A model generated the notes under the pieces. It ran no database searches and was not told where the DNA came from. It worked only from the letters and a program-made list of their open reading frames with translations. DNA of 45,106 nt, taken from positions 1 through 45,106 of the IMG/VR virus record IMGVR_UViG_3300043411_002265; one strand, 5' to 3'. Made by a program: the position numbers and the translations under genes. The DNA comes from a virus. Positions within the stretch are counted from its first letter, which is position 1. Each line of letters starts with the position of its first letter. Below, in pieces: positions 803 through 45,106 of this stretch.

Positions 803-2380
803 CTATTGTAGGAATTCGTAGTCACCGGTCATGAACTGGTATGCTATGTTAGCAAAAACAGCGGAGTGAAGCCAGTCATCCGGTTCATCCGGGTGGTGGC
901 GGAACACCCTGCTCCCCGCAAAGGTCTCTTCCTCGAACACGTTCAAAGCGTCTTTCCAATGAGGCTCGTGGAGATCCCAGCAAGGAGTTTCAAACCTGTC
1001 CCGTCCCATACGTATCTTCATCAATACGTTGTCGATGGCCTGAGTGCGGTCGGCAGCCAGGAATAATCCTTGTTTATCCCACCGTAGCTTTATCTTGGCC
1101 ATGACGTAGTTTATAAGGATAACCTTGTCGAACCCAAGTTCTTTTTGCAGTAGTTGCCCCTGAAGCACCCCAACCCCCCTGTCAGCCCCTATCATCTGGC
1201 ATCTCCACTCCCGGAACAGTTGTACGGCCCTCTCCACCTGGGCAAGGATATGGATACCTTGCATCTTCTCGGAGTACAAGTTGTAGAGCTTACCTTGGTG
1301 GTCTACCCCTATCACCGTCATCACCGTAAAGGACTTCGTGGATCCTGTCACAGACCAGTCGATGCCCAGGATGCGATGGGTGAACTGCCCCGTCTGCGGG
1401 TGCTTGTAGGCGTAACTCTTCCACTCCTGGTTGCAACACGACAACGCCTCCCGGACGGAGATAGCCTTGCCGGCCAAGTCTGTAGCCAGCCCAAAAGCTT
1501 CGTTGGCGAGCTTGGCAGGGGAATATAGTCCTCCATTCAACGCCTGGTCTACCTTCTCCCGTATCCGCAACCATTTGTTCTGCCGGGTATTGGAGGTCAT
1601 GATGAACTGGGGGAGGTGGAAACCGATCTTGTTCTTGATATCGGTGGCGGCGATCCATCTACCCTCCGCCATGTTGATAGGCTTCAGACACCTGTCGCAG
1701 ACGGGGCCGATGTCCTTGCTGCAGATAATCATGCAGGTATCGTAGTTATCCGGGATAACGTGGTGTCCACAATGTGTACACTTGCACACCCACTCCATCC
1801 GGTTGGTAGTCATCCACGCCTGCTCCAGCGTGTTGGCGGTGGACTTAGATGTACCTGAGAGAACCTTGAATCCAAACTCCGAAGCGGAGAGAATCTCGTA
1901 GATAGGAACCAGCGCGTCCCATGAAACGTCCTGCACCTCGTCCACCAGCAACTGGTCCGCCATGATTCCCCGGATACGGTCAGCGTCGTGTTCGTTCTCT
2001 GCATAGGAGAGATAGATCTTCGATCCGTTGTTGAAGCTCTTCTCAAACACGTTACGAGTTGTGTTTGTATTGGTGAAGTGTTTCTTTACGAGTGGGGATC
2101 GGATCAGAGGGTCAACGTACATTCCACTGAATCGCTTCGTTTGAATCTGCAGGGGTGCTATGTACAAGGAGTTGAAGTGGCTTCGCAGGATGGACTTTGT
2201 TACCAGTCTTCCTCCCTGTGACACGGATTTTCCTACCTGTCTTCCGGCCTTGAGAACCATGAACTCAGGGTCGAGATCATACACCAACTCGAAGGGGAGG
2301 TAGTTGTCGAACGACAGCTTCGCCCCCTTCAAATCAAGTAGGGCAGTGGCAAGTCTGGAGGGTCTGGCGTTTACTTTCAT
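803..2380 (-). CDS. terL: Phage terminase large subunit (DNA packaging ATPase/nuclease)
   Basis: This is the motor that translocates genomic DNA into the procapsid through the portal and cuts it to length. The N-terminal ATPase domain shows a Walker A motif KAGRQVGKS (about residues 44-52) and a Walker B LLVDEVQD (144-151). The nuclease domain begins near residue 338 with GIDWSVTGS, the first acidic residue being D341, and a later GADRGVG supplies another. Between the two domains lies a Cys cluster (C199, C201, C204, C216, C220, C228, C231) that looks like a zinc-binding insertion. The 525 residues are a normal length for the family. The gene is divergent from the ubiquitin-like cassette. No strong ribosome binding site precedes the ATG at 2380. 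Confidence 0.9.
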   Translation of the reverse strand: MKVNARPSRLATALLDLKGAKLSFDNYLPFELVYDLDPEFMVLKAGRQVGKSVSQGGRLVTKSILRSHFNSLYIAPLQIQTKRFSGMYVDPLIRSPLVKKHFTNTNTTRNVFEKSFNNGSKIYLSYAENEHDADRIRGIMADQLLVDEVQDVSWDALVPIYEILSASEFGFKVLSGTSKSTANTLEQAWMTTNRMEWVCKCTHCGHHVIPDNYDTCMIICSKDIGPVCDRCLKPINMAEGRWIAATDIKNKIGFHLPQFIMTSNTRQNKWLRIREKVDQALNGGLYSPAKLANEAFGLATDLAGKAISVREALSCCNQEWKSYAYKHPQTGQFTHRILGIDWSVTGSTKSFTVMTVIGVDHQGKLYNLYSEKMQGIHILAQVERAVQLFREWRCQMIGADRGVGVLQGQLLQKELGFDKVILINYVMAKIKLRWDKQGLFLAADRTQAIDNVLMKIRMGRDRFETPCWDLHEPHWKDALNVFEEETFAGSRVFRHHPDEPDDWLHSAVFANIAYQFMTGDYEFLQ

Positions 2381-6740: not shown

Positions 6741-8165
6741 ATGGACATCTTGTTACCCGGCCTTCGTGCCAGCGTTACCCATCTCGAATACGCCTCTGGC
6801 GTAGGATCAGAATACCAGGAGCTGTTTATCACTACCGTGGAAGGTAAGGTGCTAAAACGGATATCCCTCCCGCACAACCGAAAGATGATACTCCCCGTAG
6901 ACAAGGTGCCTGTTGCCAAGAAGGATAACCTGCCTGAGGTAGTGGCGGACTTCGCAGGGTTCTTCCCGGGAGGACGGAAAATCCCGGTGAAATACCTGGA
7001 TCAGATCATTCAGTTCTTCAAGGCGTTCATGAAGATGAACCCAGGGGCTGCCAGTCAATACGCGGTTCAGCACAGCTACGAGGCGATGGCGCATATCGTC
7101 TGGAGCCCTGACACAGGGTACCGGGTAGCTATCCCGACCCAGATCGTATCCGGAGCGCATGTCTCCTATGAGTGGGACCACTTGGCTCCTAACGAAGTTG
7201 TCCTGGTTGATATCCACTCCCACAACTCCATGGGTGCGTTCTTCAGCGGAACAGACAATGGAGATGACAACAACAAGCTACAGTTCTCTGGAGTGATTGG
7301 ACAGTTGGACAAGCCTGTGCCCGCTACCAAGTGGCGGTTTAACGATACCAAAAACAAGTATGAGGATATCCAGATCAGCGATATCTTCGAAGCTGAGCCA
7401 TTTGAGGTTCCCAAGGAGTGGATGGACCGGGTATCAATCCGCACCTATCAGATCCCTTCTGTACCTTCGTACGGGCAAGCCGGTCAGCGCGGGGGGTACT
7501 ACCATAACCCTCGGCAGCGGAACGACAGAGGGCAGTTCAAGAAGAAAAGCGGAGTGTCCTCCATCTTTGCTCGCAAGGTCGGAGACCCGCTCCCGGAGAA
7601 GGCCCTGAGTCTGGAGGACCTGGAGCTTGACCTCGGAGCCTGGGGGGATTGGCCGGGTGCACCGGCAGAGTCCTCTGCTCCAGTAGAGCCGAAGTGGATA
7701 GGAGAGGATGACATCATCAGGTCGGACTTCACCGTGGTGCGCATGCCCTATTTCAAGGGGGTGGAGGAGTTGGAGAGTCGGTTCATCAACACCATGGATA
7801 TGGCGTACAGCCCAACAGGGGCGGTGGGTATCGACGTGCTTGACTCCCAGTACGACGCCTGGCTGGAGATCTTCGGTATAGACCTGAACACAAAGCCTGG
7901 CGATGTGTGGATAGACATGGCCTACGCAGTTCCGGCATACGCCATGGAAGGAACCCATGGGGACTTCATGGCCTGCCTGAACCCCGAAGACAACTACATC
8001 AGCATGCTGGAGCGGGTACACGTTCCTGTTCTGGTTACCACCGCCGAGAAAAACAGGCTGGAGTCCCTGGAAGGGGCGATGCTGAAACCTGTAACCACCA
8101 CGGCAGGGGTAGTAATGGAGCCCGTAAAGGATTCGCCTGAACCGGCGCTCCTTCCTGCTCCTTGA
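6741..8165 (+). CDS. JAMM/JAB (MPN+) metalloprotease resembling PRTRC system protein A
   Basis: The motif HSHNSMGAFFSGTD (residues 159-172) is a complete JAMM signature, H-x-H-x7-S-x2-D. H159, H161 and D172 are the predicted zinc ligands and E114 in SYEAMAHIVW is the likely general acid/base. JAMM enzymes cleave isopeptide bonds or trim ubiquitin-like proteins, so this is the predicted deconjugase of the cassette. The domain covers about residues 85-235. A low-complexity linker rich in Gly, Arg, Asn and Lys (about 245-275) follows. Then comes an acidic C-terminal region of about 195 residues with no recognised fold. AAGAGG lies seven bases before the ATG. It lacks the NlpC/P60 domain of lambda-type tail-tip proteins, which argues against a tail role. 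Confidence 0.85.
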   Translation: MDILLPGLRASVTHLEYASGVGSEYQELFITTVEGKVLKRISLPHNRKMILPVDKVPVAKKDNLPEVVADFAGFFPGGRKIPVKYLDQIIQFFKAFMKMNPGAASQYAVQHSYEAMAHIVWSPDTGYRVAIPTQIVSGAHVSYEWDHLAPNEVVLVDIHSHNSMGAFFSGTDNGDDNNKLQFSGVIGQLDKPVPATKWRFNDTKNKYEDIQISDIFEAEPFEVPKEWMDRVSIRTYQIPSVPSYGQAGQRGGYYHNPRQRNDRGQFKKKSGVSSIFARKVGDPLPEKALSLEDLELDLGAWGDWPGAPAESSAPVEPKWIGEDDIIRSDFTVVRMPYFKGVEELESRFINTMDMAYSPTGAVGIDVLDSQYDAWLEIFGIDLNTKPGDVWIDMAYAVPAYAMEGTHGDFMACLNPEDNYISMLERVHVPVLVTTAEKNRLESLEGAMLKPVTTTAGVVMEPVKDSPEPALLPAP

Positions 8166-8172
8166 CAACACG

Positions 8173-8192
8173 CCGGCTCTTACGGGAGCCGG
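8173..8192 (+). other. Hairpin in the JAMM-E1 gap
   Basis: A perfect seven-pair stem CCGGCTC/GAGCCGG with a six-base loop lies between the JAMM stop and the E1 ribosome binding site. The tail is T-rich but interrupted (CATTTCTTTT), so it is at best a weak terminator; mRNA processing or stabilisation is equally possible. Confidence 0.4.
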
Positions 8193-8218
8193 AACTCATT
8201 TCTTTTAGGAGATTCTCA

Positions 8219-11200
8219 ATGTTCGAATTCATTGCTGGTGACGCACTGCCCAGAAACATCTGGCTTGTTGGGTGTGGTGGTACGGGATCGCGTATCCTGC
8301 AGCCGTTGATGCAGCTCATCGCTAGTCGCAGGATCCCCTTGACTACAAACATCTTCCTCATCGACGGGGATACTGTCGAGGCGAAGAACTGTACCAGGCA
8401 GTTGTTCCTGCCCGAAGAGGTTGGGGACTATAAGGCCAACATCCTGGCGGACAGATACCACGAGCTGTACCCCAACATCAGCCTTATCCCTATCACCGGG
8501 TATCTCTCCGTGCGGGAGGTGCTGAAGCCCTTTATGGACCCATTGGTGGTGGAGGAGTTCAGGAACGCAGTGGAGACTTCTCTCGGTATTTCCGATGTGG
8601 TGTTTCACCCTGACACCGTGAATAACCTGTCAAAGTGCTGGTACGGACCGTTGTACGCCACGTACTTGGGAGTGCTGATCCAGAACATCCGTAAGTTCCT
8701 GCCACCGGAGTCCACAGCAGAAGACATACAGGAGTACATGATGGAGACCCTGCGAAGACTGTTTGGGGGGTCCTGGAAAGCGGTAGCTCTTAGAGCATTC
8801 CACTTCATACAGTACGTGCACCTGTCCAGGGGAATAGAAGGCTACAACCCTCCACCAGACTGGAGGGTGGCGTTCAACATGGTGAAACTCAGTTTCCCTG
8901 AATCCGGTCTGGACATCTCCACCCTCCCGGAGTGGACAAGAGAGGACGCCCTGAGCCTTGGGCTGTGGAGCAACTTCCACAAGTTGGAAAGCATCGTGCT
9001 TGGCGATTGGTCTCAGGAGGAGATGCTGGCTATCGGGGCAACTCTGTGGTTCACCAATAACTACACAGAGGACGGTGGAAGTATCCGGGATGGAATACAG
9101 GCGTTACACGACCTCACAGACCCGGGGGTCCTTAGACAAATATCCAGCTTGAAAATGGTATCCCCAATAGGGGCCGCGTACGCTTCTCCATGCAGCCCTC
9201 TCGACTCGGAGCGTAAAAATAATATAGTGTCACGGACACCACGGTTGGGTAGGTATAGCCTTGACTCTATGGTACCACTGCAGAAAGCGGTTAGCGGGTT
9301 TTGCTCCCCGGACATCATCATCCTGGCCGTAGACTCCCCCAACGCCAGGAAGGAGATACTGGCAGTTGCCACTCTGCTGACCAAGGACACGGAGTCAGAC
9401 CGCAGGCGCAAGATACTGGTAGTGGACCCGGGTAACGAGGATAACTTCGGACAGGTATCCGTAACTACTCTCGGAAAGAAGCTGCCCTTGCCTATCATGG
9501 ATTCCTTTGTCCCTGAGAAGGAGAAGGCGAAGTTCAACTGCGGTATGTCTACGGTCCACTACATGCCGGAGCCCTGCAGCTTCATTGGAATGGACCTGGA
9601 CATGCCTGGGCAGATAAAAGAGTTCCTGGAGCAGCTTCCCAACAAGGGGTTCTTCACAGAGAGCCTGGACTTCCTCCCATGGTCCCCCTTCTCGTTCCTG
9701 TTACGGAAAAAGAGTGAGGTAGCTGTCTCCTGTGCGGGGATGGACCAGACCCTGGCGATCAACAATGTGATGGCGTCCATGACGGTGTCCGCGTTGCAGA
9801 ACGCTATCTTCCAGGCGCCCGCTACGATGGAGACAAGCAGGTTCAGCCTGGTGTCTTCTGTCATGGGGCAGTCTACGGATATCCCCTGGTTCCGTCGAAA
9901 GATGGGAGAGGGTGACGTGGAAGACACCTCAATAGCCTATATGGGGGAGACCACAGAGACCCTGCTACTGGTCTACCGGTGCCAAGGTGTTGAGCACCTG
10001 GATGTGTATAACAAGGTCACCATGGAATGTATTTCGACCACCGCGGAAACCCCGATGTTCACCCTGGTGTTACAAGCCATGTACGAGGGGAACAACTACA
10101 GCACTGCGGATATCCTGAACGCGAAGATCGTTTTCGTGAGCCTGGTAGCTGGGGTTCCCTACCCAGTGTCCATCGTATCCACTCCAGGGTCCACCGGGAG
10201 ACAACAGTGTGGAGTCGTGCCCATGAGGTCGGCCCACGTCAGGATAACCCCGCTGGCGGTCAGTGAGGAGGCCTTTACAGAAGAGTGCGGAAGGGATTAC
10301 ACACCAGGGCCAGCTACGATAAGCCATGTGCTATTCCTGGCCGGTATCCTCTCGAACCCATCGGGCTACTCCAGCAAGGTCCTGGCGAAAAGCCTGGAGT
10401 CCCTTGAGGTCGTAAGCCTTGGGTACCGAGGTATCGTATCCGGATTCCTGGAAAACGCGCCAGAGTTACTGCCAGAGATCTTCACGCCGGATCCACTATT
10501 CCAGGATAACGGGGTATGGGAAGGCCTGTCCTCGGTGAGTTTGGCGATTGCGCATGCCAGGCTGAACACCCTGTCGTTAATGGAGCTTGTCAGGAAGAAG
10601 AGGGGGCTGTGGGGTGGAGAGCAACCGAAAGAGTTGAACACACTTTCCACCCTGGAGTTGATCGTGAAGGATACCGTAACCGCTGCTCAGTCCAGCGTTG
10701 TGGTATACGAGATGATTGTAGCCGGGGGAACGAATACCAGGCCCAGGTCTTCGTTATGGTACTTCGGAGTACCGACAACCCTGAAGTCTCCGTACTCCGA
10801 TACCGTCTTCATCAACGCTCCAAAGGACCCCCAGAGAATCTGGAGGCAAAAGGCGATACGGAAAACGATGTCCAATATCCGGGGGTTCATATACCAAGGA
10901 GCGGCAACCTCCTCCCCGTTTGGGCCTGCACCCGATAGGCTGCCAGTGTCGAACTCCATGTACCCCCCGAGAATCACGAAGTTGGTGTACCTGTGTGATA
11001 ATTCGACGGTGTCATCCAGGGGAGTCCTGACGAGGAGCTACCTGTTACGAAACACCCTGGTGTCCTCCGAGTTCTCGGTGAGGGAGCTTCAGCGTGTCTG
11101 TGGAAACGAACTGACCCTGGGGTATATCCTGGACGATGGGACTTGGCAGGAGTTCTCCAGGGGGGCGAAGCTTGTTCCGACGTCGAGGGACCCTGAGTTA

Positions 11201-11302
11201 GCGTTGGTTCTGTCGTGGAATGTAAACTTCCTGGACCCGTTGGTGAAGATAACCCGTGTCGCCCCTGTGGAGGAGACGGCGGCAGTGGAGGTAGCAGAAT
11301 AA
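8219..11302 (+). CDS. Very large ThiF/E1-like activating enzyme with a C-terminal extension
   Basis: The ATG at 8219 is chosen because TTTAGGAG lies seven bases upstream. Residues 13-23 (NIWLVGCGGTG) are the nucleotide-binding Rossmann loop. LIDGDTVEAKNCTRQLF (47-63) is the classic E1 signature, with R60 as the conserved Arg. After an insertion of about 260 residues come IIILAVDSPNARKEI (366-380), VVDPGNEDNFGQVSV (401-415) and SCAGMDQTLAINNVMAS (504-520). The last two resemble motifs I recall in PRTRC ThiF proteins, with C505 a candidate catalytic Cys. Predicted role: adenylate the C-terminal Gly of the 68-aa protein and charge the E2-like protein. At 1027 aa it is several times the length of bacterial ThiF proteins. 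Residues from about 535 onward match nothing I recognise. Confidence 0.8.
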   Translation: MFEFIAGDALPRNIWLVGCGGTGSRILQPLMQLIASRRIPLTTNIFLIDGDTVEAKNCTRQLFLPEEVGDYKANILADRYHELYPNISLIPITGYLSVREVLKPFMDPLVVEEFRNAVETSLGISDVVFHPDTVNNLSKCWYGPLYATYLGVLIQNIRKFLPPESTAEDIQEYMMETLRRLFGGSWKAVALRAFHFIQYVHLSRGIEGYNPPPDWRVAFNMVKLSFPESGLDISTLPEWTREDALSLGLWSNFHKLESIVLGDWSQEEMLAIGATLWFTNNYTEDGGSIRDGIQALHDLTDPGVLRQISSLKMVSPIGAAYASPCSPLDSERKNNIVSRTPRLGRYSLDSMVPLQKAVSGFCSPDIIILAVDSPNARKEILAVATLLTKDTESDRRRKILVVDPGNEDNFGQVSVTTLGKKLPLPIMDSFVPEKEKAKFNCGMSTVHYMPEPCSFIGMDLDMPGQIKEFLEQLPNKGFFTESLDFLPWSPFSFLLRKKSEVAVSCAGMDQTLAINNVMASMTVSALQNAIFQAPATMETSRFSLVSSVMGQSTDIPWFRRKMGEGDVEDTSIAYMGETTETLLLVYRCQGVEHLDVYNKVTMECISTTAETPMFTLVLQAMYEGNNYSTADILNAKIVFVSLVAGVPYPVSIVSTPGSTGRQQCGVVPMRSAHVRITPLAVSEEAFTEECGRDYTPGPATISHVLFLAGILSNPSGYSSKVLAKSLESLEVVSLGYRGIVSGFLENAPELLPEIFTPDPLFQDNGVWEGLSSVSLAIAHARLNTLSLMELVRKKRGLWGGEQPKELNTLSTLELIVKDTVTAAQSSVVVYEMIVAGGTNTRPRSSLWYFGVPTTLKSPYSDTVFINAPKDPQRIWRQKAIRKTMSNIRGFIYQGAATSSPFGPAPDRLPVSNSMYPPRITKLVYLCDNSTVSSRGVLTRSYLLRNTLVSSEFSVRELQRVCGNELTLGYILDDGTWQEFSRGAKLVPTSRDPELALVLSWNVNFLDPLVKITRVAPVEETAAVEVAE

Positions 11303-27820: not shown

Positions 27821-28615
27821 GTGTTTACTAACCCGTGGATTCCCGTGAACTTATCCTATTACTACGACTCCATCTGCAAGCAGCCTCTCCTGTCACGGGA
27901 CGAAGAAGAAGCCCTGTTCAACGTGGTCCGAGATACCACTGACCTCTACTCCGATAAGGAGAAGGCGGCAGCCAGGGACCGTATCATAACCGCTAACCTG
28001 AGGTTCGTCTTCCAGAAAGCCAAGGAGAAATCCAAGTCAGATCCGGAGATGTTCGAAGTGCTCATCGCTGCGGGAAACGAAGGGCTGTTGAAAGCCTTTC
28101 GAAAGTTCAATCCGGACAGAGGAATACGATTTCTATCCTACGCCGGATGGTGGGTGCTTCAGACGCAGTTGAAGGAGATGTCCCTCATGCGCATCGTAGC
28201 CCTACCCATTTGGAAACAGCAGCTTGCTGCCAAGATAGCCAGGATACAACTGGACTCGGAAGACCAGGTTCCTATTGATAAGCTGTGCGAGATATTCCCA
28301 GAACACAGCCGTTCAGTTGTGGAGGAGCTTTCTTCCACCAAGTACCTCACCTACTACTTTGAGGATTTCATGGAGGACAACTCCACGTTCGAGGAGGAGT
28401 ACGCCTCGTACCTGCAGGAGGAATCCGAAGACCTCTCCTCTCTCTGCATGAAGCTCCCGCATCCCTGTGGGATGGTCCTTATTATGTACTTCGGACTGCA
28501 CGACGGAATCCGCCGCGGAACAAAATACGTTTCTGCCTCTTTGGGCATTTCAGTAGATGAGGTAAAGAAAGCGAGGAAGAAAGGGCTGGCTATCCTGCAC
28601 CATTTACTCTGTTAA
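27821..28615 (+). CDS. Phage-encoded sigma-70-family RNA polymerase sigma factor
   Basis: The GTG start at 27821 has TAAGGG upstream. The sequence shows sigma region 2: ITANLRFVFQKAKEKS, then VLIAAGNEGLLKAFRKFNPD, then IRFLSYAGWWVLQTQLKEM (regions 2.1-2.4, polymerase-clamp and -10 contact). The C-terminal region 4 has a helix-turn-helix (VSASLGISVDEVKKARKKGL). A short region 1.2-like helix (LLSRDEEEALFNVV) is at the front. It would redirect host or phage RNA polymerase to phage promoters, perhaps the GGTATAAG sites. It stands alone on the plus strand between leftward genes. Confidence 0.85.
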   Translation: MFTNPWIPVNLSYYYDSICKQPLLSRDEEEALFNVVRDTTDLYSDKEKAAARDRIITANLRFVFQKAKEKSKSDPEMFEVLIAAGNEGLLKAFRKFNPDRGIRFLSYAGWWVLQTQLKEMSLMRIVALPIWKQQLAAKIARIQLDSEDQVPIDKLCEIFPEHSRSVVEELSSTKYLTYYFEDFMEDNSTFEEEYASYLQEESEDLSSLCMKLPHPCGMVLIMYFGLHDGIRRGTKYVSASLGISVDEVKKARKKGLAILHHLLC

Positions 28616-31098: not shown

Positions 31099-32958
31099 TC
31101 AGCTCTCCTGTGTCAAGGTTACTCCTCTTTCGAGGAAGAATTCCCGTATGTCTTCCTTGTTCTGCATACAGGTATGCGTGTGTTTTTCGATAGGCAGATC
31201 TGCAGTCAACAGGTAGTACTCCGGAGAGAACCTCATGCCTATCCTGTGGCTACGGTCCTGTTGCTGTATGAACCGCTCCAGGCTGAACCCTATGCTGTAG
31301 AAGACATGAGTATACACGCTCGTGCTCAGGTCCGGTAGCGCCTGGCCTGTCTCCTTCTCCAGCTTGTCCGGAGTGGTACCGAGGATGGTTACCCCATAGT
31401 TCACACTCTGGCTTTGGCATACCAGGATGTCCAGCTCCTGGGTGTTGTTGAAACGTCGGATACTGTCTGAAGCGTTCTTCTCCTTCCCGGATACCACCGC
31501 GTACCGAAGACCAGCCTCATCCAGGGCCTTGCACAGGATCTCCTGTTCCGCGGTCATGGTGTACCACACCAGTACCTTGCGCCCTTTCAATTTCCCATTC
31601 AACAGGGAGAGCAGGACGTCCGCCTTGGGTTGCTCCGGGAAAAACAGTGTCTCTCGTTTTGCCCCCGTCTTCTCCCTTCTCTCAAAGGTAAACAGGTCGA
31701 AGGCGCTATCGTCGTCCGACAGGTAGACAAACCCACTCCCGAACTGCTTGAGCTTGCAGTCTCGGGTGAGAGGATTACCAACCTCCACCTTTCTTCCCTG
31801 TATAACGGTGAGGCTGTTTCTCTCCAGTTCATCGTACGCTTGTTTGACCCAGGATGGTACTTCCACGTCAATCATGAAGAACTGTTTGGCCGGCAACTTC
31901 AACCAGTCCTCTTTCCTCATGACGATGCTGCAGGAGCGCAGGATCCCCCGCACCTCGTCCTCGTCACGAAACCCAACGTCGAACCGTTTCTTCTTTTGCC
32001 CGGTTTTTCTCTCCAACTCCGCCTTCTTTTTCTTGGACATGTTGAAGACGCAGTACCGCTCCTTGAACTTGAAGAAGGAGTTCCCTACCAGGGAGGGCTC
32101 CATGATGTTCACGGGTGCGTATACGTCCAGCGGGGAGTTGTTGATCAGTGTCCCCGACATCAAGACAACCTGGGCTCCGGTGACCCGGACCAGGTCCGTG
32201 ATTGCCTCCGTCCTGTTCGAGGTTGGGTCCTTTACCAAGGCCTCGTCCACTGCGATCAAGTCAGGGTTCAGTTGCTTCAGAACCTCCACCCCCGCTGCAG
32301 CCTGGGCGTACCCCACAGTGACGATGTCCGCCTCCAGCATCCCAGCCCAGTCAGCCTCTCGTTCCCGGAGTAGCTTCCGGAGCTCCCGGTTAAGCAGAGT
32401 GGAGTCTGCCCCCTCCTTTTTCAGCTTCTCCATTCTGGAAGCTTCCCTGGAGTCCCAGGTGATCGACTCAGGATGGAACAGGGTCTTGTCCGGGCGGTGG
32501 GTCTTCACTTCGTCTTCCCATACAAAGAGCAAGGGAACTGGGCAGATGACCAGGACCTTGCGGAAGTTCCCCAGGGCAGCGTAGTCCAGTACCACCTTGG
32601 TCTTCCCAAGTCCGGGATCCAGGAGCAGGCCTCCCCCATGGTTGGTGTATAGAAACTTCAGGGCGAGTTCCTGGTGTTCCAGGGGCGTGGTAAAATACTG
32701 AAAAGTCTCCGGTAGCTCCTTCAACTTGACACTACTTTTGTAGAGTGGGAGGACGTCCTCCGAGACGGTTACCCGCTGCCCGGAAGCCTTGAGTCGGGAG
32801 ACCAGGTTATAGACCACGGACTCCTTGGGTTTTGCACAGTAACTTCTTGTTTTCATTGAGTAAAAAAACCCCGGGAACTCCTGGATGCAGGACAGGTCCC
32901 TGGGTGTGGAAATATCGGCTTCAACTAGCCCGGTTTCTTTGTTAAGATATAAGTGCAT
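31099..32958 (-). CDS. SNF2-family superfamily 2 DNA helicase/translocase
   Basis: The N-terminal 90 residues are a variable domain. Walker A is DPGLGKTK (114-121), the Walker B/DEAD-like box is AVDEALV, and motif III is LMSGTLINNSP. The C-terminal core ends with QQQDRSHRIGM, the SNF2 motif VI. Phage SNF2 proteins translocate on double-stranded DNA and are involved in replication, recombination or restart. It begins below a GGTATAAG site. Domain order and the 619-aa length are normal. Confidence 0.85.
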   Translation of the reverse strand: MHLYLNKETGLVEADISTPRDLSCIQEFPGFFYSMKTRSYCAKPKESVVYNLVSRLKASGQRVTVSEDVLPLYKSSVKLKELPETFQYFTTPLEHQELALKFLYTNHGGGLLLDPGLGKTKVVLDYAALGNFRKVLVICPVPLLFVWEDEVKTHRPDKTLFHPESITWDSREASRMEKLKKEGADSTLLNRELRKLLREREADWAGMLEADIVTVGYAQAAAGVEVLKQLNPDLIAVDEALVKDPTSNRTEAITDLVRVTGAQVVLMSGTLINNSPLDVYAPVNIMEPSLVGNSFFKFKERYCVFNMSKKKKAELERKTGQKKKRFDVGFRDEDEVRGILRSCSIVMRKEDWLKLPAKQFFMIDVEVPSWVKQAYDELERNSLTVIQGRKVEVGNPLTRDCKLKQFGSGFVYLSDDDSAFDLFTFERREKTGAKRETLFFPEQPKADVLLSLLNGKLKGRKVLVWYTMTAEQEILCKALDEAGLRYAVVSGKEKNASDSIRRFNNTQELDILVCQSQSVNYGVTILGTTPDKLEKETGQALPDLSTSVYTHVFYSIGFSLERFIQQQDRSHRIGMRFSPEYYLLTADLPIEKHTHTCMQNKEDIREFFLERGVTLTQES

Positions 32959-36019: not shown

Positions 36020-36937
36020 ATGAGAAAAATCGGTAACATCGTAGGAGGCATTGGAACTTCCGGGACTGGAAACGTAGGAGACATCCTGCGTAAGGTAGGA
36101 GAAGCGGCTGACGCATACGAGTGGGTTCCTCTTACCGAAGTGGTAGGTGGACTGGTGAACGGCACTACCGGTATCACCATTCCGAATGCCAGCGAAGATT
36201 TACTCTACGACGCCACTTCAGGGTTTCTCCATCGATTCAAGGTAAACGGGGTTGACGCCTTTACCGTCTCCGGGAGCGTGGCCTCGCTGGTAACTCTGTT
36301 CAGCCAGGTAAGTGGAGATGAGACCGCTGAGCTGTCTACTATCCGGGCTACCCACGCCTCTTTCAGCGGCACAGTACAAGAGCTCTCGGTTAACCGTGCG
36401 GAAGACTCCGGGTTTGATTTCCTGACCTGTGTTACCGACGCCGGCGGATCCCCCAACATCAGACTGTCCATTGATGGAACCGGGCAGCTTGCCTCTGACA
36501 AACCCACCATCGTTAACGGAGCGGACTACGCGGAGATGTTCGAGTGGGAAGACGGGAATCCTACTATGGAGGACCGCGTGGGAATGACCGTCTGTTTGTC
36601 CACCAGTTCTCCCGGAAAGATTCGGGTAGCTACCGCGTTTGACCCAGGCCACAAGGTCGTCGGAGCGATCTCCGGAAAGCCTACCAGTATCGGGAACGCC
36701 GAACCTCTTGGTTGGAAGGGTAAGTACCCACGTGACCTGTTTGGCCGGCAGGCGGGCCAGGACCCCGTGCCGGAGTTCAACCCTGAGTTAAGCTACTTGC
36801 CACGTCAACTGCGGGACGACTGGGGTGTGGTTGGATTGCTAGGGCAGATCCCAATCTGGAAGGGGCAGCCCATTCACCCTAACTGGGTATTCATCAAGGA
36901 TTTGTCCAAAGACGTTGCATTGTATCTGGTGAAATAA
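36020..36937 (+). CDS. Tail protein with peptidase G2-like autoproteolytic domain (305 aa)
   Basis: The C-terminal half contains NGADYAEMFEWEDGNP (about 170-185) and VVGAISGKPTSIGNA, the hallmarks of the peptidase G2 / intramolecular chaperone domain found at the ends of phage fibre and spike proteins. Such domains assist trimer folding and may cleave themselves off. The N-terminal half is beta-rich (SFSGTVQELSVN). It lies between fibre genes, consistent with fibre assembly. The catalytic residue was not identified. Confidence 0.7.
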   Translation: MRKIGNIVGGIGTSGTGNVGDILRKVGEAADAYEWVPLTEVVGGLVNGTTGITIPNASEDLLYDATSGFLHRFKVNGVDAFTVSGSVASLVTLFSQVSGDETAELSTIRATHASFSGTVQELSVNRAEDSGFDFLTCVTDAGGSPNIRLSIDGTGQLASDKPTIVNGADYAEMFEWEDGNPTMEDRVGMTVCLSTSSPGKIRVATAFDPGHKVVGAISGKPTSIGNAEPLGWKGKYPRDLFGRQAGQDPVPEFNPELSYLPRQLRDDWGVVGLLGQIPIWKGQPIHPNWVFIKDLSKDVALYLVK

Positions 36938-40985: not shown

Positions 40986-42812
40986 ATGGCCGCAATGTAC
41001 GACGACCCAAGAAACCTCTCCAGGTTCGGTGGAACAGGGACACCCAACCCTTTCTACACAATCGCTAACCAGTTCGTCCCGCGTAACCTGCACGACGTTA
41101 TCAAGTGGGCGAGGTTCATCTTTACACAATCCCCGACGTTGACCGAAGTTATCCGGAAATACGCTACCTACCCGATCACAGAGATAGAGTACACAGGGGG
41201 TGCTGGTAGTAACCTCACGGAGGCGAACAAGTACAAGGCCCTGGAGGAAAGCCTTAAGCTTCCAAAGTTCCTGGCGGACTCCGGGGTAAACTTCTACACC
41301 ATCGGCAACGACTTTATCTCCATCTACTTCCCCATAATCCGTACCCTGGTGTGTCCTGACAAAAGCTGCAACCACGCCATGGAGATACGTGCGGCGTTGA
41401 GAAGTGGAGACTACAAGTTTCACAATTTCAAGTTCCGTGGAACCTGCACCAAGTGTCTAAAAGCAAGCGCAGACTTCAAAGTCGTGGATGTCAAGTCTAT
41501 GGATGTGTCAGGAATCAATCTGATACGCTGGCCGGCAGAGACCATCACGATTAACCACAACCACATCACCGGTGAATCTGAGTACTGGTACAATATCCCG
41601 AACTCCGTAAAGCGCAGGGTAATGGCGGGGGATCCTAACTTTATCTCCACGATCCCATGGGAGATCATCGAGGCAGTAAAGAAGAAGCAGAGCTTCCTGT
41701 TCTCCCCCGGAAGCCTTTACCAGATGAAGAACCTGGAGTTTGGCGGCATTCTGGAAGGCTACGGCTTGCCTCCTATTATCAGCATGTATTCCTCGGTCTT
41801 CCATATCGCTATCCTCAAGCGGGCCAACGAGGCCATCGCCACCGAGCATATGACCCCGTTGCGGGTAATTTACCCGAACCAGGGCTCCTCCGCCGGGGAT
41901 CCTATCTCCATGATGAGCATGCAAGGGTTCGTAGGCCGTATGGAGGACTCCTTCAAGAAGTTCCGTACGGATCCTAACCACCTGATCGTGGCTCCTATAC
42001 CTGTAGGGTACCAGGCGATTGGCGGCCAAGGCAGGGCTATGCTGGTTACCCAGGAACTGGAAGCCGAAGAGGAGTCCATGCTTCTTGGCATGGGGGTGTC
42101 CCGAGAACTATTGAGTGGATCTACCAACTGGACCAGCTCTACCATTGGGCTACGTCTTCTGGAAAACACCATGAGCTCCTGGACCTCGGAAATGGACCTG
42201 TTCATCCAGTGGACCATGACCAAGATTGGCGCTTACCTGGGGTATTCCCCGGTGAAAGCCAAGTTGAAACCTTTTGCGTTGATCGATGACGAAACACTCA
42301 AGAACCAGGCAGTTCAGTTGGCAGAGGCAGGCCTCATCTCCCCAAGCAAGCTCATGTCCGTCTTTGATATGGACCTTAAGGAAGAGCTGGAGACCTCTGT
42401 GAAAGACAAGGTAGCCATGGCCCTTCGTGATGCAGAGGTTAACGACAAGGTGAAGACTGCCCTGTTCATGAAATCACAGGAGCTGGAAGAGAAGGACAAG
42501 GAATCCTCCGGTATCACCGAGGTTCGCAAGAAGGCGTACGAACTGGCGGTGAACATCGCCAATCGCCCAGATCCAATTGAGCGGGCGCAGCTCTTGTTCA
42601 GCCTGAAGGCGGAAAGTGTGGCTCTGTACACGCAGGTGCAAGAGCTGTTGGATGAGTACACGGTGATGGTGCAGTCCCAAGCGCAGGGGGTACCCATGGG
42701 GGGACTTGCTGCGGGAGATGGCCAGACCACAGGTGTGGAGCCGGTTAACGACGTGGCTGCTTCCGGAAACAACATCAACCCTTCCCGCCTGGCCGGACAA
42801 GCCCAGGCGTAA
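40986..42812 (+). CDS. Portal protein with a zinc-ribbon insertion (608 aa)
   Basis: The portal forms the ring at the capsid vertex through which the terminase pumps DNA. The middle region (RANEAIATEHMTPLRVIYPN; ELEAEEESMLLGMGVSREL) and the C-terminal helical, Gln/Ala-rich end match the general layout of phage portals. Four Cys (C123, C128, C154, C157) form a probable zinc ribbon that is unusual in portals. It heads the rightward group with the RNA polymerase gene. Family assignment is from layout, not a full alignment. Confidence 0.75.
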   Translation: MAAMYDDPRNLSRFGGTGTPNPFYTIANQFVPRNLHDVIKWARFIFTQSPTLTEVIRKYATYPITEIEYTGGAGSNLTEANKYKALEESLKLPKFLADSGVNFYTIGNDFISIYFPIIRTLVCPDKSCNHAMEIRAALRSGDYKFHNFKFRGTCTKCLKASADFKVVDVKSMDVSGINLIRWPAETITINHNHITGESEYWYNIPNSVKRRVMAGDPNFISTIPWEIIEAVKKKQSFLFSPGSLYQMKNLEFGGILEGYGLPPIISMYSSVFHIAILKRANEAIATEHMTPLRVIYPNQGSSAGDPISMMSMQGFVGRMEDSFKKFRTDPNHLIVAPIPVGYQAIGGQGRAMLVTQELEAEEESMLLGMGVSRELLSGSTNWTSSTIGLRLLENTMSSWTSEMDLFIQWTMTKIGAYLGYSPVKAKLKPFALIDDETLKNQAVQLAEAGLISPSKLMSVFDMDLKEELETSVKDKVAMALRDAEVNDKVKTALFMKSQELEEKDKESSGITEVRKKAYELAVNIANRPDPIERAQLLFSLKAESVALYTQVQELLDEYTVMVQSQAQGVPMGGLAAGDGQTTGVEPVNDVAASGNNINPSRLAGQAQA

Positions 42813-42828
42813 CGCAGAGGACTACTGA

Positions 42829-43233
42829 ATGGCGAATGACGCAATGGTAGGAGGATGGGATCCCTCCTCGTATGGAGCCGATTCTACTGGCGTTCCGACG
42901 ATGCCGGGGATGACAAAAGACCTGAAAATGGCACCTACTTCCAAGACTCCGCCTTTGTCGGACTACAATGTCCGTATACAGCGATTCGTTATTGACGAGG
43001 AGAACGCAGGTGATATCGCCATGCTGGAGAACCTCTGGACGATCGGTATGGACCCGACACGGGACGAGATCGTCATCCTGAACAACAAGGAGTTCACCAA
43101 CGAGGCTACCCTGGTCATCGTGGTTACCTTTCTTGAGCACAAGAAAAGAAAGGTTAACTGGAGATTGGGGGATAGCGCACCGAGTCTACCAACTGCCAAG
43201 GATGTCTTTGAAGAAATTAACCGGAAGAAATAA
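42829..43233 (+). CDS. Unknown 134-aa protein between portal and RNA polymerase beta
   Basis: N-terminus is Gly/Ser/Pro-rich and probably disordered. The rest alternates strands and helices (DYNVRIQRFVIDEENAG; EATLVIVVTFLEHKKRKVNW), ending in a basic helix. It starts 16 bases after the portal gene and ends two bases before the beta-like gene, so all three are co-transcribed. No family is recognised. Confidence 0.75.
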   Translation: MANDAMVGGWDPSSYGADSTGVPTMPGMTKDLKMAPTSKTPPLSDYNVRIQRFVIDEENAGDIAMLENLWTIGMDPTRDEIVILNNKEFTNEATLVIVVTFLEHKKRKVNWRLGDSAPSLPTAKDVFEEINRKK

Positions 43234-43235
43234 CT

Positions 43236-45106
43236 GTGGCCATACGAAACATCTTCACTGACCCGTCCCAAACCGAGGAGCTCTCCAAGAGGGAACTCTT
43301 GAAGGGAATCCAGTCCCAGTTTCCTGTGGAGACGGGGGAGTACCGCCTGGAAGCCTCGGATATTGTCGTAGATGACTCCCCCCTTACAAAGGCGGAGGAG
43401 AAGGACGCGCTGTTGAAGACAAAATCGGTCATGCGACACGTTCGGGGGACCCTAACCCTGAAGGACAAGCGCACAGGTAAAGTTTTGGACGTGGAGAAGA
43501 ACTTCCCCTTGTCTGACTTCTACAAGATGACCGATAAGCACACCCTGATCTACAAGGGAAACAACTACTCCATCGCCAACCTTATCCAGCTCATGCCCGG
43601 CGTGTACACCCGCAGCAAGAAGGATGGGGAGCTGGAAGCACAGATCAATACCGGTACGGGTCGTGGCTTATCTATGCAGTTAAACCCCGAATCCGGGGTG
43701 TTCACTATGATGGCTCAGGGGTCCAAGGCAAAGATCCCGGTGGCACCCCTCCTTACCGAAGTCTTCGGGGTGACCGCCCGAGAGGTGTCCCAGTACATCC
43801 CAGGGGATGTGTGGGCCAAAAGCTCCGCCAACCTTACCCCCGTGAAGGTGACTGGGGCTATCGACACCTTGTACTCCAGTGTAGTTGACCGATCTCTGCA
43901 GAAGCCTGGCGCTTCCTACGATGACAAGCGTCTGGCAGTTAGGCAGGCATTGGAGAAGTCCCAGTTGTCACCAGTAACTACTAAGATCACACTTGGTGTA
44001 GAGAAGGAGGCAATTGACAAAGAGGTCCTCCTAAAGGCGATGAAGAACATCGTTGACGTACACACGGGTGTACGCGAGGAAGACAACCGTGACTCACTGG
44101 AGTTCAAGAGGGTGCAGAGCCTCCCCGACTTTGTTCGGGACCGCTTCGCTAAGGAAGACGAGTCTGTCAAGAAGGTGAAGAAGCACCTGACCTACCGCCT
44201 TACCCGTATCGACCAGGAAGAGCCGAAGATCAAGGGGGTTATCGGAGCGAAGCCGTTCAAGGACGTGTTCTCCAACATCATTGTTCGGAGTAACCTATCC
44301 TCCACCCCGACCGAAACCAATCCACTGGAATCCTTGGAGAACGTAGGAAAGGTTACCGCTATCGCTGCCGGTGAGGGTGGTATGAGTAGCAGCCGTATGG
44401 CTGACTTCAACACCAAGAACATCCACCCGTCTCACCTTGGCATCATCGACCCGAGCCGTACCCCGGAATCCGGGAACGCAGGCCTTGACCAGCGTTTCAC
44501 CATTTCCGCCATGCGAGACGACAAGGGTATTCTGTATTCCAAGCTGACCAATGCCAAGACCGGGAAGGAGGAGGCGGTCTCCGCACAAAAGCTGATGTCA
44601 GTAGCTGTTGGATTTCCACACCAGAAAGGTACTAAGGTGTACGCCCAGGTGAAAGGTAAGATCCTGGAGGTGGATCGCTCCAAGGTGGACTACTGGATTC
44701 CTGACAGCACCCACATGTACACCGTTACCACCAACATGGTTCCCTTTATGGGGAACAACCACCCTGGCCGTTTGACTATGGCTGGCAAGGCCTTGACGCA
44801 AGCCCTTTCCCTGGAGAACCGGGAGGTTCCACTGGTTCAGACCATGGCTCCCTCCGGCAGATCTTTCTCCAAGGACTTTGGAGAGTTCATCAGCACCCGG
44901 TCACCCGTAGACGGCACGGTAGAACGAGTTGCTACAGACCAGATTGTTCTTCGAGACAAGGAAGGAAAGCTGCACAAGGTGGAGCTCATCAAGAATATGC
45001 CTTTTAACGCGAAGGGGTTCCATGATGATATCCCGGTTGTGAAGGCGGGGGACGCTGTCAAGAAGGGGCAGGTCATCGCGGATAACACCTACACCAAAGA
45101 CGGTCA
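43236..45106 (+). CDS. RNA polymerase beta subunit homologue (partial, continues off the right edge)
   Basis: A GTG start with GGAAG eight bases upstream opens about 623 codons before the window ends. It aligns by eye with bacterial beta: MTDKHTLIYKGNNYSIANLI and LMPGVYTRSKKDG (about 98-131), EDNRDSLEFKRVQSLPDF (about 282-299), NPLESL through GKVTAIAAGEGG (362-382, the rifampicin-region equivalent), IHPSHLGIIDPSRTPESG (396-413) and, near the edge, NMVPFMGNNHPGRL and PVVKAGDAVKKGQVIAD. This is a genuine multisubunit polymerase relative, as in giant phages. It lies directly behind the portal, possibly so the enzyme can be packaged. The catalytic beta C-terminus and beta-prime are outside the window. 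Confidence 0.85.
   Translation, partial: MAIRNIFTDPSQTEELSKRELLKGIQSQFPVETGEYRLEASDIVVDDSPLTKAEEKDALLKTKSVMRHVRGTLTLKDKRTGKVLDVEKNFPLSDFYKMTDKHTLIYKGNNYSIANLIQLMPGVYTRSKKDGELEAQINTGTGRGLSMQLNPESGVFTMMAQGSKAKIPVAPLLTEVFGVTAREVSQYIPGDVWAKSSANLTPVKVTGAIDTLYSSVVDRSLQKPGASYDDKRLAVRQALEKSQLSPVTTKITLGVEKEAIDKEVLLKAMKNIVDVHTGVREEDNRDSLEFKRVQSLPDFVRDRFAKEDESVKKVKKHLTYRLTRIDQEEPKIKGVIGAKPFKDVFSNIIVRSNLSSTPTETNPLESLENVGKVTAIAAGEGGMSSSRMADFNTKNIHPSHLGIIDPSRTPESGNAGLDQRFTISAMRDDKGILYSKLTNAKTGKEEAVSAQKLMSVAVGFPHQKGTKVYAQVKGKILEVDRSKVDYWIPDSTHMYTVTTNMVPFMGNNHPGRLTMAGKALTQALSLENREVPLVQTMAPSGRSFSKDFGEFISTRSPVDGTVERVATDQIVLRDKEGKLHKVELIKNMPFNAKGFHDDIPVVKAGDAVKKGQVIADNTYTKDG

What the first reader, a model, noticed from the sequence alone, without database searches (positions are those of the whole stretch)
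43236..45106. Multisubunit RNA polymerase beta homologue behind the portal gene
The visible 623 residues match bacterial beta through most N-terminal landmarks in a single unsplit gene, whereas phiKZ-like phages split their beta and beta-prime genes. Location directly after the portal gene raises the possibility of packaging in the virion.
Basis: partly seen in the sequence, partly recalled or inferred. Interest (0 to 1): 0.8.

Follow-up and report, generated by a model that had tools for sequence, protein, structure and literature searches.

The report
Phage-packaged bacterial-type RNA polymerase subunit
The end of this phage fragment carries the first half of the beta subunit of a bacterial-type RNA polymerase belonging to a widespread, barely described phage group, whose one proteome-studied member appears to package the enzyme in its particles together with a sigma factor, so it probably starts transcription without the host's polymerase.

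Summary
ORF 43236-45104(+), GTG start, open at the contig edge, is the N-terminal part of an RNA polymerase beta subunit. Close relatives (45-53% identity over the whole visible length) are Salmonella phage Arash gp206, Vibrio phages D69/D181/D148 and about 60 IMG/VR loci, with a portal gene upstream wherever there is room. In these relatives beta is one chain with all active-site residues. It also runs on into beta-prime: the beta chain carries the beta-prime N-terminal head, without its zinc domain. Beta-prime is cut in the clamp (not in the Arash subclade) and again after the catalytic loop. The window virus is a long-branch member; whether its beta is fused to the beta-prime catalytic part is unknown, because the record stops. 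Virion packaging is supported by published Arash proteomics: beta is the most-detected protein, and my re-analysis puts beta, beta-prime C, sigma gp10 and a SNF2 helicase at structural-protein levels, unlike replication enzymes. All 16 large records tested have one beta, two sigma factors and no detectable alpha; phiKZ-type phages have two polymerase cores and no recognisable sigma. I infer one injected core used successively with two sigmas. New variant of a known kind.

The parts
43236..45106 (+). RNA polymerase beta subunit, N-terminal 623 residues, 3' end cut off by the record edge
42829..43233 (+). small ORF (134 aa) between portal and beta, in the position of Arash gp205
   Evidence: position and end-to-start spacing; no Pfam match; homology to gp205 judged by position only
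40986..42812 (+). portal protein (44% to Arash gp204)
   Evidence: phrog_2739 portal; 37-46% to the ORF upstream of beta in relatives
27821..28615 (+). sigma factor of the non-virion type (Arash gp196 family), candidate middle/late sigma for this polymerase
   Evidence: Pfam Sigma70_r2 above cut-off; relatives in 16 of 16 large records of the group
803..2380 (-). large terminase, 61% to Arash gp1; places the virus in the Arash-like group independently of the polymerase
31099..32958 (-). SNF2/UvsW-type helicase (Arash gp198 homologue), neighbour shared with the group; not shown to act with the polymerase

Best explanation
This is the N-terminal half of the beta subunit of the single multisubunit RNA polymerase of an Arash-like tailed phage. 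The rest of the enzyme lies beyond the record edge and should follow the relatives: the beta chain continues through its catalytic barrel, runs on into the beta-prime head (zinc domain lost), then the beta-prime catalytic barrel (same chain or a following ORF), with the bridge-helix/trigger-loop half of beta-prime as a separate protein of about 606 aa. The enzyme is loaded into the particle with a dedicated sigma (gp10 type) and a SNF2 ATPase, injected with the DNA, and transcribes early genes without host polymerase; a second sigma (gp196 type, present in this window) is made in the cell and redirects the same core to later promoters. Shown: beta identity, group membership, gene order, catalytic residues and both sigmas in relatives, virion detection in Arash. 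Inferred: the state beyond the edge, packaging in this virus, injection, early transcription, sigma succession.
For: Beta identity. Relatives at 45-53% over the full visible length with portal upstream. Rest of the enzyme in relatives: Arash gp206 carries Rpb2_6, Rpb1_1, Rpb1_2 and gp216 carries Rpb1_5; beta active-site residues invariant in 39 sequences; beta-prime D-x-DGD in all 63 hits, bridge helix and trigger-loop His kept; beta-prime C half in 18 of 18 records. Exactly one beta per large record, 16/16, alpha 0/16 with the control positive in 13/14, gp10-type sigma 16/16, gp196-type sigma 16/16. Virion: PMC10585845 Table 2; unique peptides per 100 aa are sigma gp10 10.3, capsid 9.8, beta 8.4, SNF2 8.1, beta-prime C 6.6, portal 5.5, against primase 0.2, ligase 0.6, helicase gp197 0.4, ribonucleotide reductase 1.4; gp196 not listed. 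Clamp helices, the sigma docking site, are recognisable in the beta-prime part.
Against: The gene is truncated in the window and none of its own catalytic region is seen. The window is a long branch (1.1 changes per site) in the group. Only one member has proteome data; its authors consider carry-over possible, and their total-spectra column looks uneven (primase 932 spectra from 2 unique peptides). No transcription experiment was found for any member. Catalytic-loop Asn458 is replaced by Ala or Ser throughout and trigger-loop Met932/Arg933 are changed, which may alter activity.
Confidence: 0.72

Rival explanations
1. A real phage RNA polymerase, but made in the infected cell for middle/late genes; its detection in particles of the relative is carry-over of an abundant protein.
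For: The Arash authors raise this themselves; many non-structural enzymes are in the same table at low peptide counts.
Against: Unique-peptide density of beta, beta-prime C and sigma gp10 equals capsid and portal and is several- to tens-fold above replication enzymes; genes lie among head and tail genes.
Confidence: 0.15
2. Degenerate, catalytically dead beta that now serves as a structural or ejection protein of the head.
For: Asn458 lost throughout, trigger-loop Met/Arg changed; embedded in structural genes; very abundant in Arash particles.
Against: All metal-binding Asp of the beta-prime loop and the beta E-D/K/K/R residues are kept; the beta-prime C half and sigma co-occur in every genome tested.
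Confidence: 0.08
3. Bacterial rpoB contamination or recent capture from a host.
For: Several 'phage' database records with rpoB are in fact bacterial contigs (L136 has rplA-rplJ-rplL-rpoB-rpoC).
Against: Only 25% identity to bacterial RpoB against 45-53% to phage beta; portal, terminase and sigma neighbours match the Arash group; the beta-prime part of relatives is a separate 100/100 lineage.
Confidence: 0.01

Closest known systems
Salmonella phage Arash ('Arashvirus', OQ632216) gp206/gp216 RNA polymerase
   Same: Orthologous beta (49% identity over the window's 623 residues), same portal-small ORF-beta order, related terminase (61%), portal and sigma
   Different: The window virus is far from Arash (long branch, different genome arrangement); fusion to the beta-prime catalytic part unknown. 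The Arash paper does not describe the beta/beta-prime fusion in the text read.
phiKZ-type jumbo phage virion RNA polymerase
   Same: Multisubunit, beta/beta-prime only, no alpha, found in virions; beta-prime cut after the catalytic barrel; SNF2 helicase gene next to beta-prime C (PMC7598289, PMC7824862)
   Different: phiKZ type splits beta, has two polymerase sets and no recognisable sigma; here beta is whole and continues into beta-prime, one set, two sigmas
mReC, multimeric RNAP-encoding Caudovirales (PMC7481178)
   Same: Tailed phages with alignable beta and beta-prime
   Different: mReC were selected for beta-prime of at least 800 aa with NADxDGD, and those with a detected capsid gene have PF07068; this group has A/S-x-D-x-DGD, beta-prime in pieces and a PF05065-like capsid
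Single-chain or virion-fused phage polymerases (crAss-like, P23-45 TMP-RNAP; PMC7481178, PMC10770324)
   Same: Virion transcription by double-barrel enzymes (P23-45); beta and beta-prime parts joined in one chain (crAss-like)
   Different: The crAss-like enzyme is reported too divergent to align with cellular subunits; this one aligns along its length
Cobetia phage Carin-5 and Yersinia phage YerA41 polymerases
   Same: Phage beta and beta-prime genes; Carin-5 has an annotated sigma next to them (not supported by Pfam here)
   Different: Separate lineage; beta about 925 aa and not joined to beta-prime; RNAP genes among replication/nucleotide genes

Membership tests
Arash-like phage RNA polymerase group | Beta ortholog similar over the full visible length | tested here: met
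   45-53% over about 620 residues to all members
Arash-like phage RNA polymerase group | Portal gene and small ORF immediately upstream of beta | tested here: met
   the small ORF by position only
Arash-like phage RNA polymerase group | Same terminase, portal and gp196-type sigma families | tested here: met
   terminase 61%, portal 37-46%, sigma 41-45%
Arash-like phage RNA polymerase group | Beta chain running on into the beta-prime head; beta-prime C half as separate gene | not testable with these tools
   window ends inside beta; seen in relatives
Arash-like phage RNA polymerase group | Polymerase in the virion | not testable with these tools
   published for Arash only
phiKZ-type jumbo phage RNAP | Beta encoded by two or more genes | tested here: not met
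   single beta ORF in relatives; the visible 623 residues are unsplit in the window
phiKZ-type jumbo phage RNAP | Two polymerase sets per genome | tested here: not met
   one beta in each of 16 large records of the group; the window's own record is a fragment
phiKZ-type jumbo phage RNAP | No sigma homologue | tested here: not met
   sigma in the window and two in each of 16 records
mReC (Weinheimer and Aylward 2020) | NADxDGD in a beta-prime of at least 800 aa, separate from beta | tested here: not met
   0 of 63 relatives have N at that position; beta-prime in pieces; not readable in the window itself
mReC (Weinheimer and Aylward 2020) | Major capsid protein PF07068 | tested here: not met
   Arash capsid protein weakly PF05065, no PF07068; no capsid gene identified in the window
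mReC (Weinheimer and Aylward 2020) | Monophyly with mReC RNAP | not tested
Cellular RNA polymerase beta | Beta over the curated equivalog cut-off | tested here: not met
   152.8 of 896 bits for the 623-residue part, 311.8 of 896 for Arash gp206

The most novel reading that the evidence does not exclude
A phage lineage that packages a complete sigma-containing bacterial-type holoenzyme: one polymerase core, descended from a beta-beta-prime fusion later re-cut inside the beta-prime clamp and after the catalytic barrel, is injected with a virion sigma for early genes and then re-used with a second, newly made phage sigma. This would be a third transcription strategy beside phiKZ (two cores, no sigma) and T4-like (host core, phage sigma).
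Probability: 0.45. Interest if true: 0.75.

Novelty: new variant of a known kind. Interest (0 to 1): 0.55.

Why it matters
Virion multisubunit polymerases are known mainly from phiKZ-type phages, and a 2020 review states that none had been purified (PMC7598289). This group has a simpler layout (two or three chains, one set, own sigmas) and cultured members, so the open questions of how such an enzyme is packaged, passes the tail and starts transcription become testable. The beta-beta-prime junction kept in both layouts, with the cuts elsewhere, also bears on whether split phage polymerases are primitive or secondarily broken: a group I intron sits in beta of one Vibrio phage where its near-identical relative is intact.

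Tried and rejected
Single-protein scan of IMG/VR with P0001 found nothing; alignment queries were needed. The bacterial genome collection gave only two MAG contigs, likely phage. Use of the tree to decide whether the window's beta is fused to the beta-prime catalytic part: it falls next to the fused clade (95/95 and 98/84) but on a long branch, and best identity is to a separate-type member (53%), so undecided. The zinc-like beta-prime relative gp7 as an extra polymerase subunit: weak match (E 4e-7), no Pfam; left open. Contamination and recent host capture rejected. No further copy of the polymerase or beta-prime C half in the window. In the second look with VIA-align the listed chains cover residues 8-906 of the L083 beta model only, so the beta-prime head there rests on sequence profiles, not on the model. 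Two oversize region requests failed.

Full report
What is there. The ORF at 43236-45104 on the + strand reads 623 residues without a stop to the record edge. It starts with GTG, 8 nt after a GGAAG, two bases behind the stop of the preceding ORF. NCBIfam beta models match at 9e-45 and 1e-39, PDB beta chains at up to 1e-34; Pfam Rpb2_3 passes its cut-off and Rpb2_2 falls just short. Blastp against bacterial RpoB gives 104 bits against a maximum of 31 for 200 shuffles. An AlphaFold model from 43 related sequences (mean pLDDT 75, poor in about 354-422 and 495-535) finds RNA polymerase beta chains (E 1e-28, TM about 0.6). The record is an IMG/VR virus contig of 45106 bases, so the gene cannot be followed further.

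Which virus. The best hits are Salmonella phage Arash gp206 (49%) and Vibrio phages D69, D181 and D148 (46%), over the full 623 residues. Arash-like neighbours surround it in the window: portal (44%), the small ORF in the place of gp205, terminase (61%), helicases and a sigma factor (41-45% to the gp196 type), and a primase with a 29% relative in D69. Alignment searches found 30 and then 64 IMG/VR loci, many on contigs of 145-193 kb. A portal ORF lies upstream of beta in every locus with room for it. The window is a long branch inside this group, next to the Arash/Vibrio subclade.

What the complete gene looks like in relatives. Arash gp206 (1525 aa) carries beta to its C terminus and then beta-prime through the catalytic loop; gp216 (606 aa) carries the rest of beta-prime, with bridge helix and trigger loop. 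Active-site residues of beta (E-D, K, K, R) are invariant in 39 sequences. The catalytic loop reads A/S-x-D-x-DGD in all 63 hits, so the three Asp are kept and Asn458 is not. In most members the reading frame ends near Arash position 1110-1142 and a second ORF of about 385 aa starts near 1144. A profile comparison shows that the tail of this shorter beta (L083 residues 1000-1133) matches bacterial beta-prime from residue 18 on (E 1.5e-7) and does not match beta (0.99), with the zinc-binding domain missing, while residues 850-1000 match the beta C terminus. So in members of both layouts beta runs on into beta-prime. My inference is that a beta-beta-prime fusion came first and was later cut in the clamp; an origin in the other direction would still need the joined head. 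The fused layout forms one side of a branch in the tree (99/91). Two types of beta gene are interrupted at the same site; both have a group I intron there (RF00028, about 101 and 108 bits), and in D181 an HNH endonuclease follows in the insertion while near-identical D69 is uninterrupted.

Is it packaged. Published LC-MS of sucrose-purified Arash particles lists gp206 as the most-detected protein, gp216 among the top five, and sigma gp10 (PMC10585845). The authors leave carry-over open. I divided unique peptides by length for a chosen set of 31 proteins: sigma gp10 10.3 per 100 aa, capsid 9.8, beta 8.4, SNF2 gp217 8.1, beta-prime C 6.6, gp218 5.9, portal 5.5; replication and nucleotide enzymes lie at 0.2 to 1.7 (an RNA exonuclease at 2.9). 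This argues for real packaging of a polymerase with sigma. The total-spectra column is less reliable, since proteins with two peptides have hundreds of spectra. The second sigma, gp196, is not in the list. For the window virus packaging is inference from orthology and gene position.

Transcription programme. Sixteen large records of the group each have one beta, one gp10-type sigma and one gp196-type sigma (two records have a second weak or split match); a beta-prime C half was found in all 18 records searched for it. Alpha was found in none, with the control search positive in 13 of 14 genomes; a very divergent alpha is not excluded. Reviews state that phiKZ-type phages have two polymerase sets and no recognisable sigma (PMC7598289, PMC7824862, PMC13282480). 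I therefore propose one injected core with a virion sigma for early genes and a second sigma afterwards. The sigma succession is not shown. The rifampicin pocket is substituted at most contacts, in the window itself too, which predicts that early phage transcripts continue in the presence of the drug.

Place among known systems. The beta-prime catalytic part of the group is a separate lineage (100/100) from bacteria and from the other phage enzymes I could align (Carin-5, YerA41, RHph_TM30, Va2, 1.031.O). It fails the published selection criteria of mReC (NADxDGD, beta-prime of at least 800 aa) and lacks their capsid family PF07068 (PMC7481178), and it fails the phiKZ layout (split beta, two sets). 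I found no paper that describes the fusion or the sigma-containing virion enzyme; the only paper in the library naming 'Arashvirus' is the isolation report. The library holds open-licence papers only.

Verdict. The window contributes a divergent member to a known but hardly described variant.

Noticed in passing
window 6741-8165(+) and 8162-11302(+): Adjacent genes with a JAB-type peptidase domain (Prok-JAB) and a ThiF/E1 domain in a 1046-aa protein: a possible ubiquitin-like conjugation or deconjugation pair in a phage; weak partial relatives are Arash gp247 and gp246.
   Followed up: no
L071 7425-8105 (Arash gp7, 226 aa): Virion protein with weak similarity (E 4e-7) to the zinc/trigger-loop part of beta-prime, separate from the polymerase genes; similar weak matches in seven other records.
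   Followed up: partly
L005 9503-9783 and 5706-5913; L019 11536-11817: Group I introns inside or next to the beta and portal genes of Vibrio phage D181 and in beta of an IMG/VR relative, one followed by an HNH endonuclease.
   Followed up: partly
L083 13370-16290, L021 13327-15240, L109, L124: In separate-layout members, unrelated genes, several looking like tail or fibre proteins, lie between beta and the beta-prime catalytic ORF.
   Followed up: partly
L002 31139-34454 (Arash gp217, gp218): SNF2 ATPase and an unknown protein follow beta-prime C and are about as densely detected in virions as the polymerase; possible parts of the packaged complex.
   Followed up: partly
window 36020-36937(+): Peptidase_G2 autoproteolytic chaperone domain in a putative tail-fibre or appendage protein.
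   Followed up: no
L136 (CAKLQF020000005.1), L134, L135: Records labelled phage in the public collection that look like bacterial contigs with rpoB/rpoC (L136 has rplA-rplJ-rplL-rpoB-rpoC); they inflate database searches for phage polymerases.
   Followed up: partly
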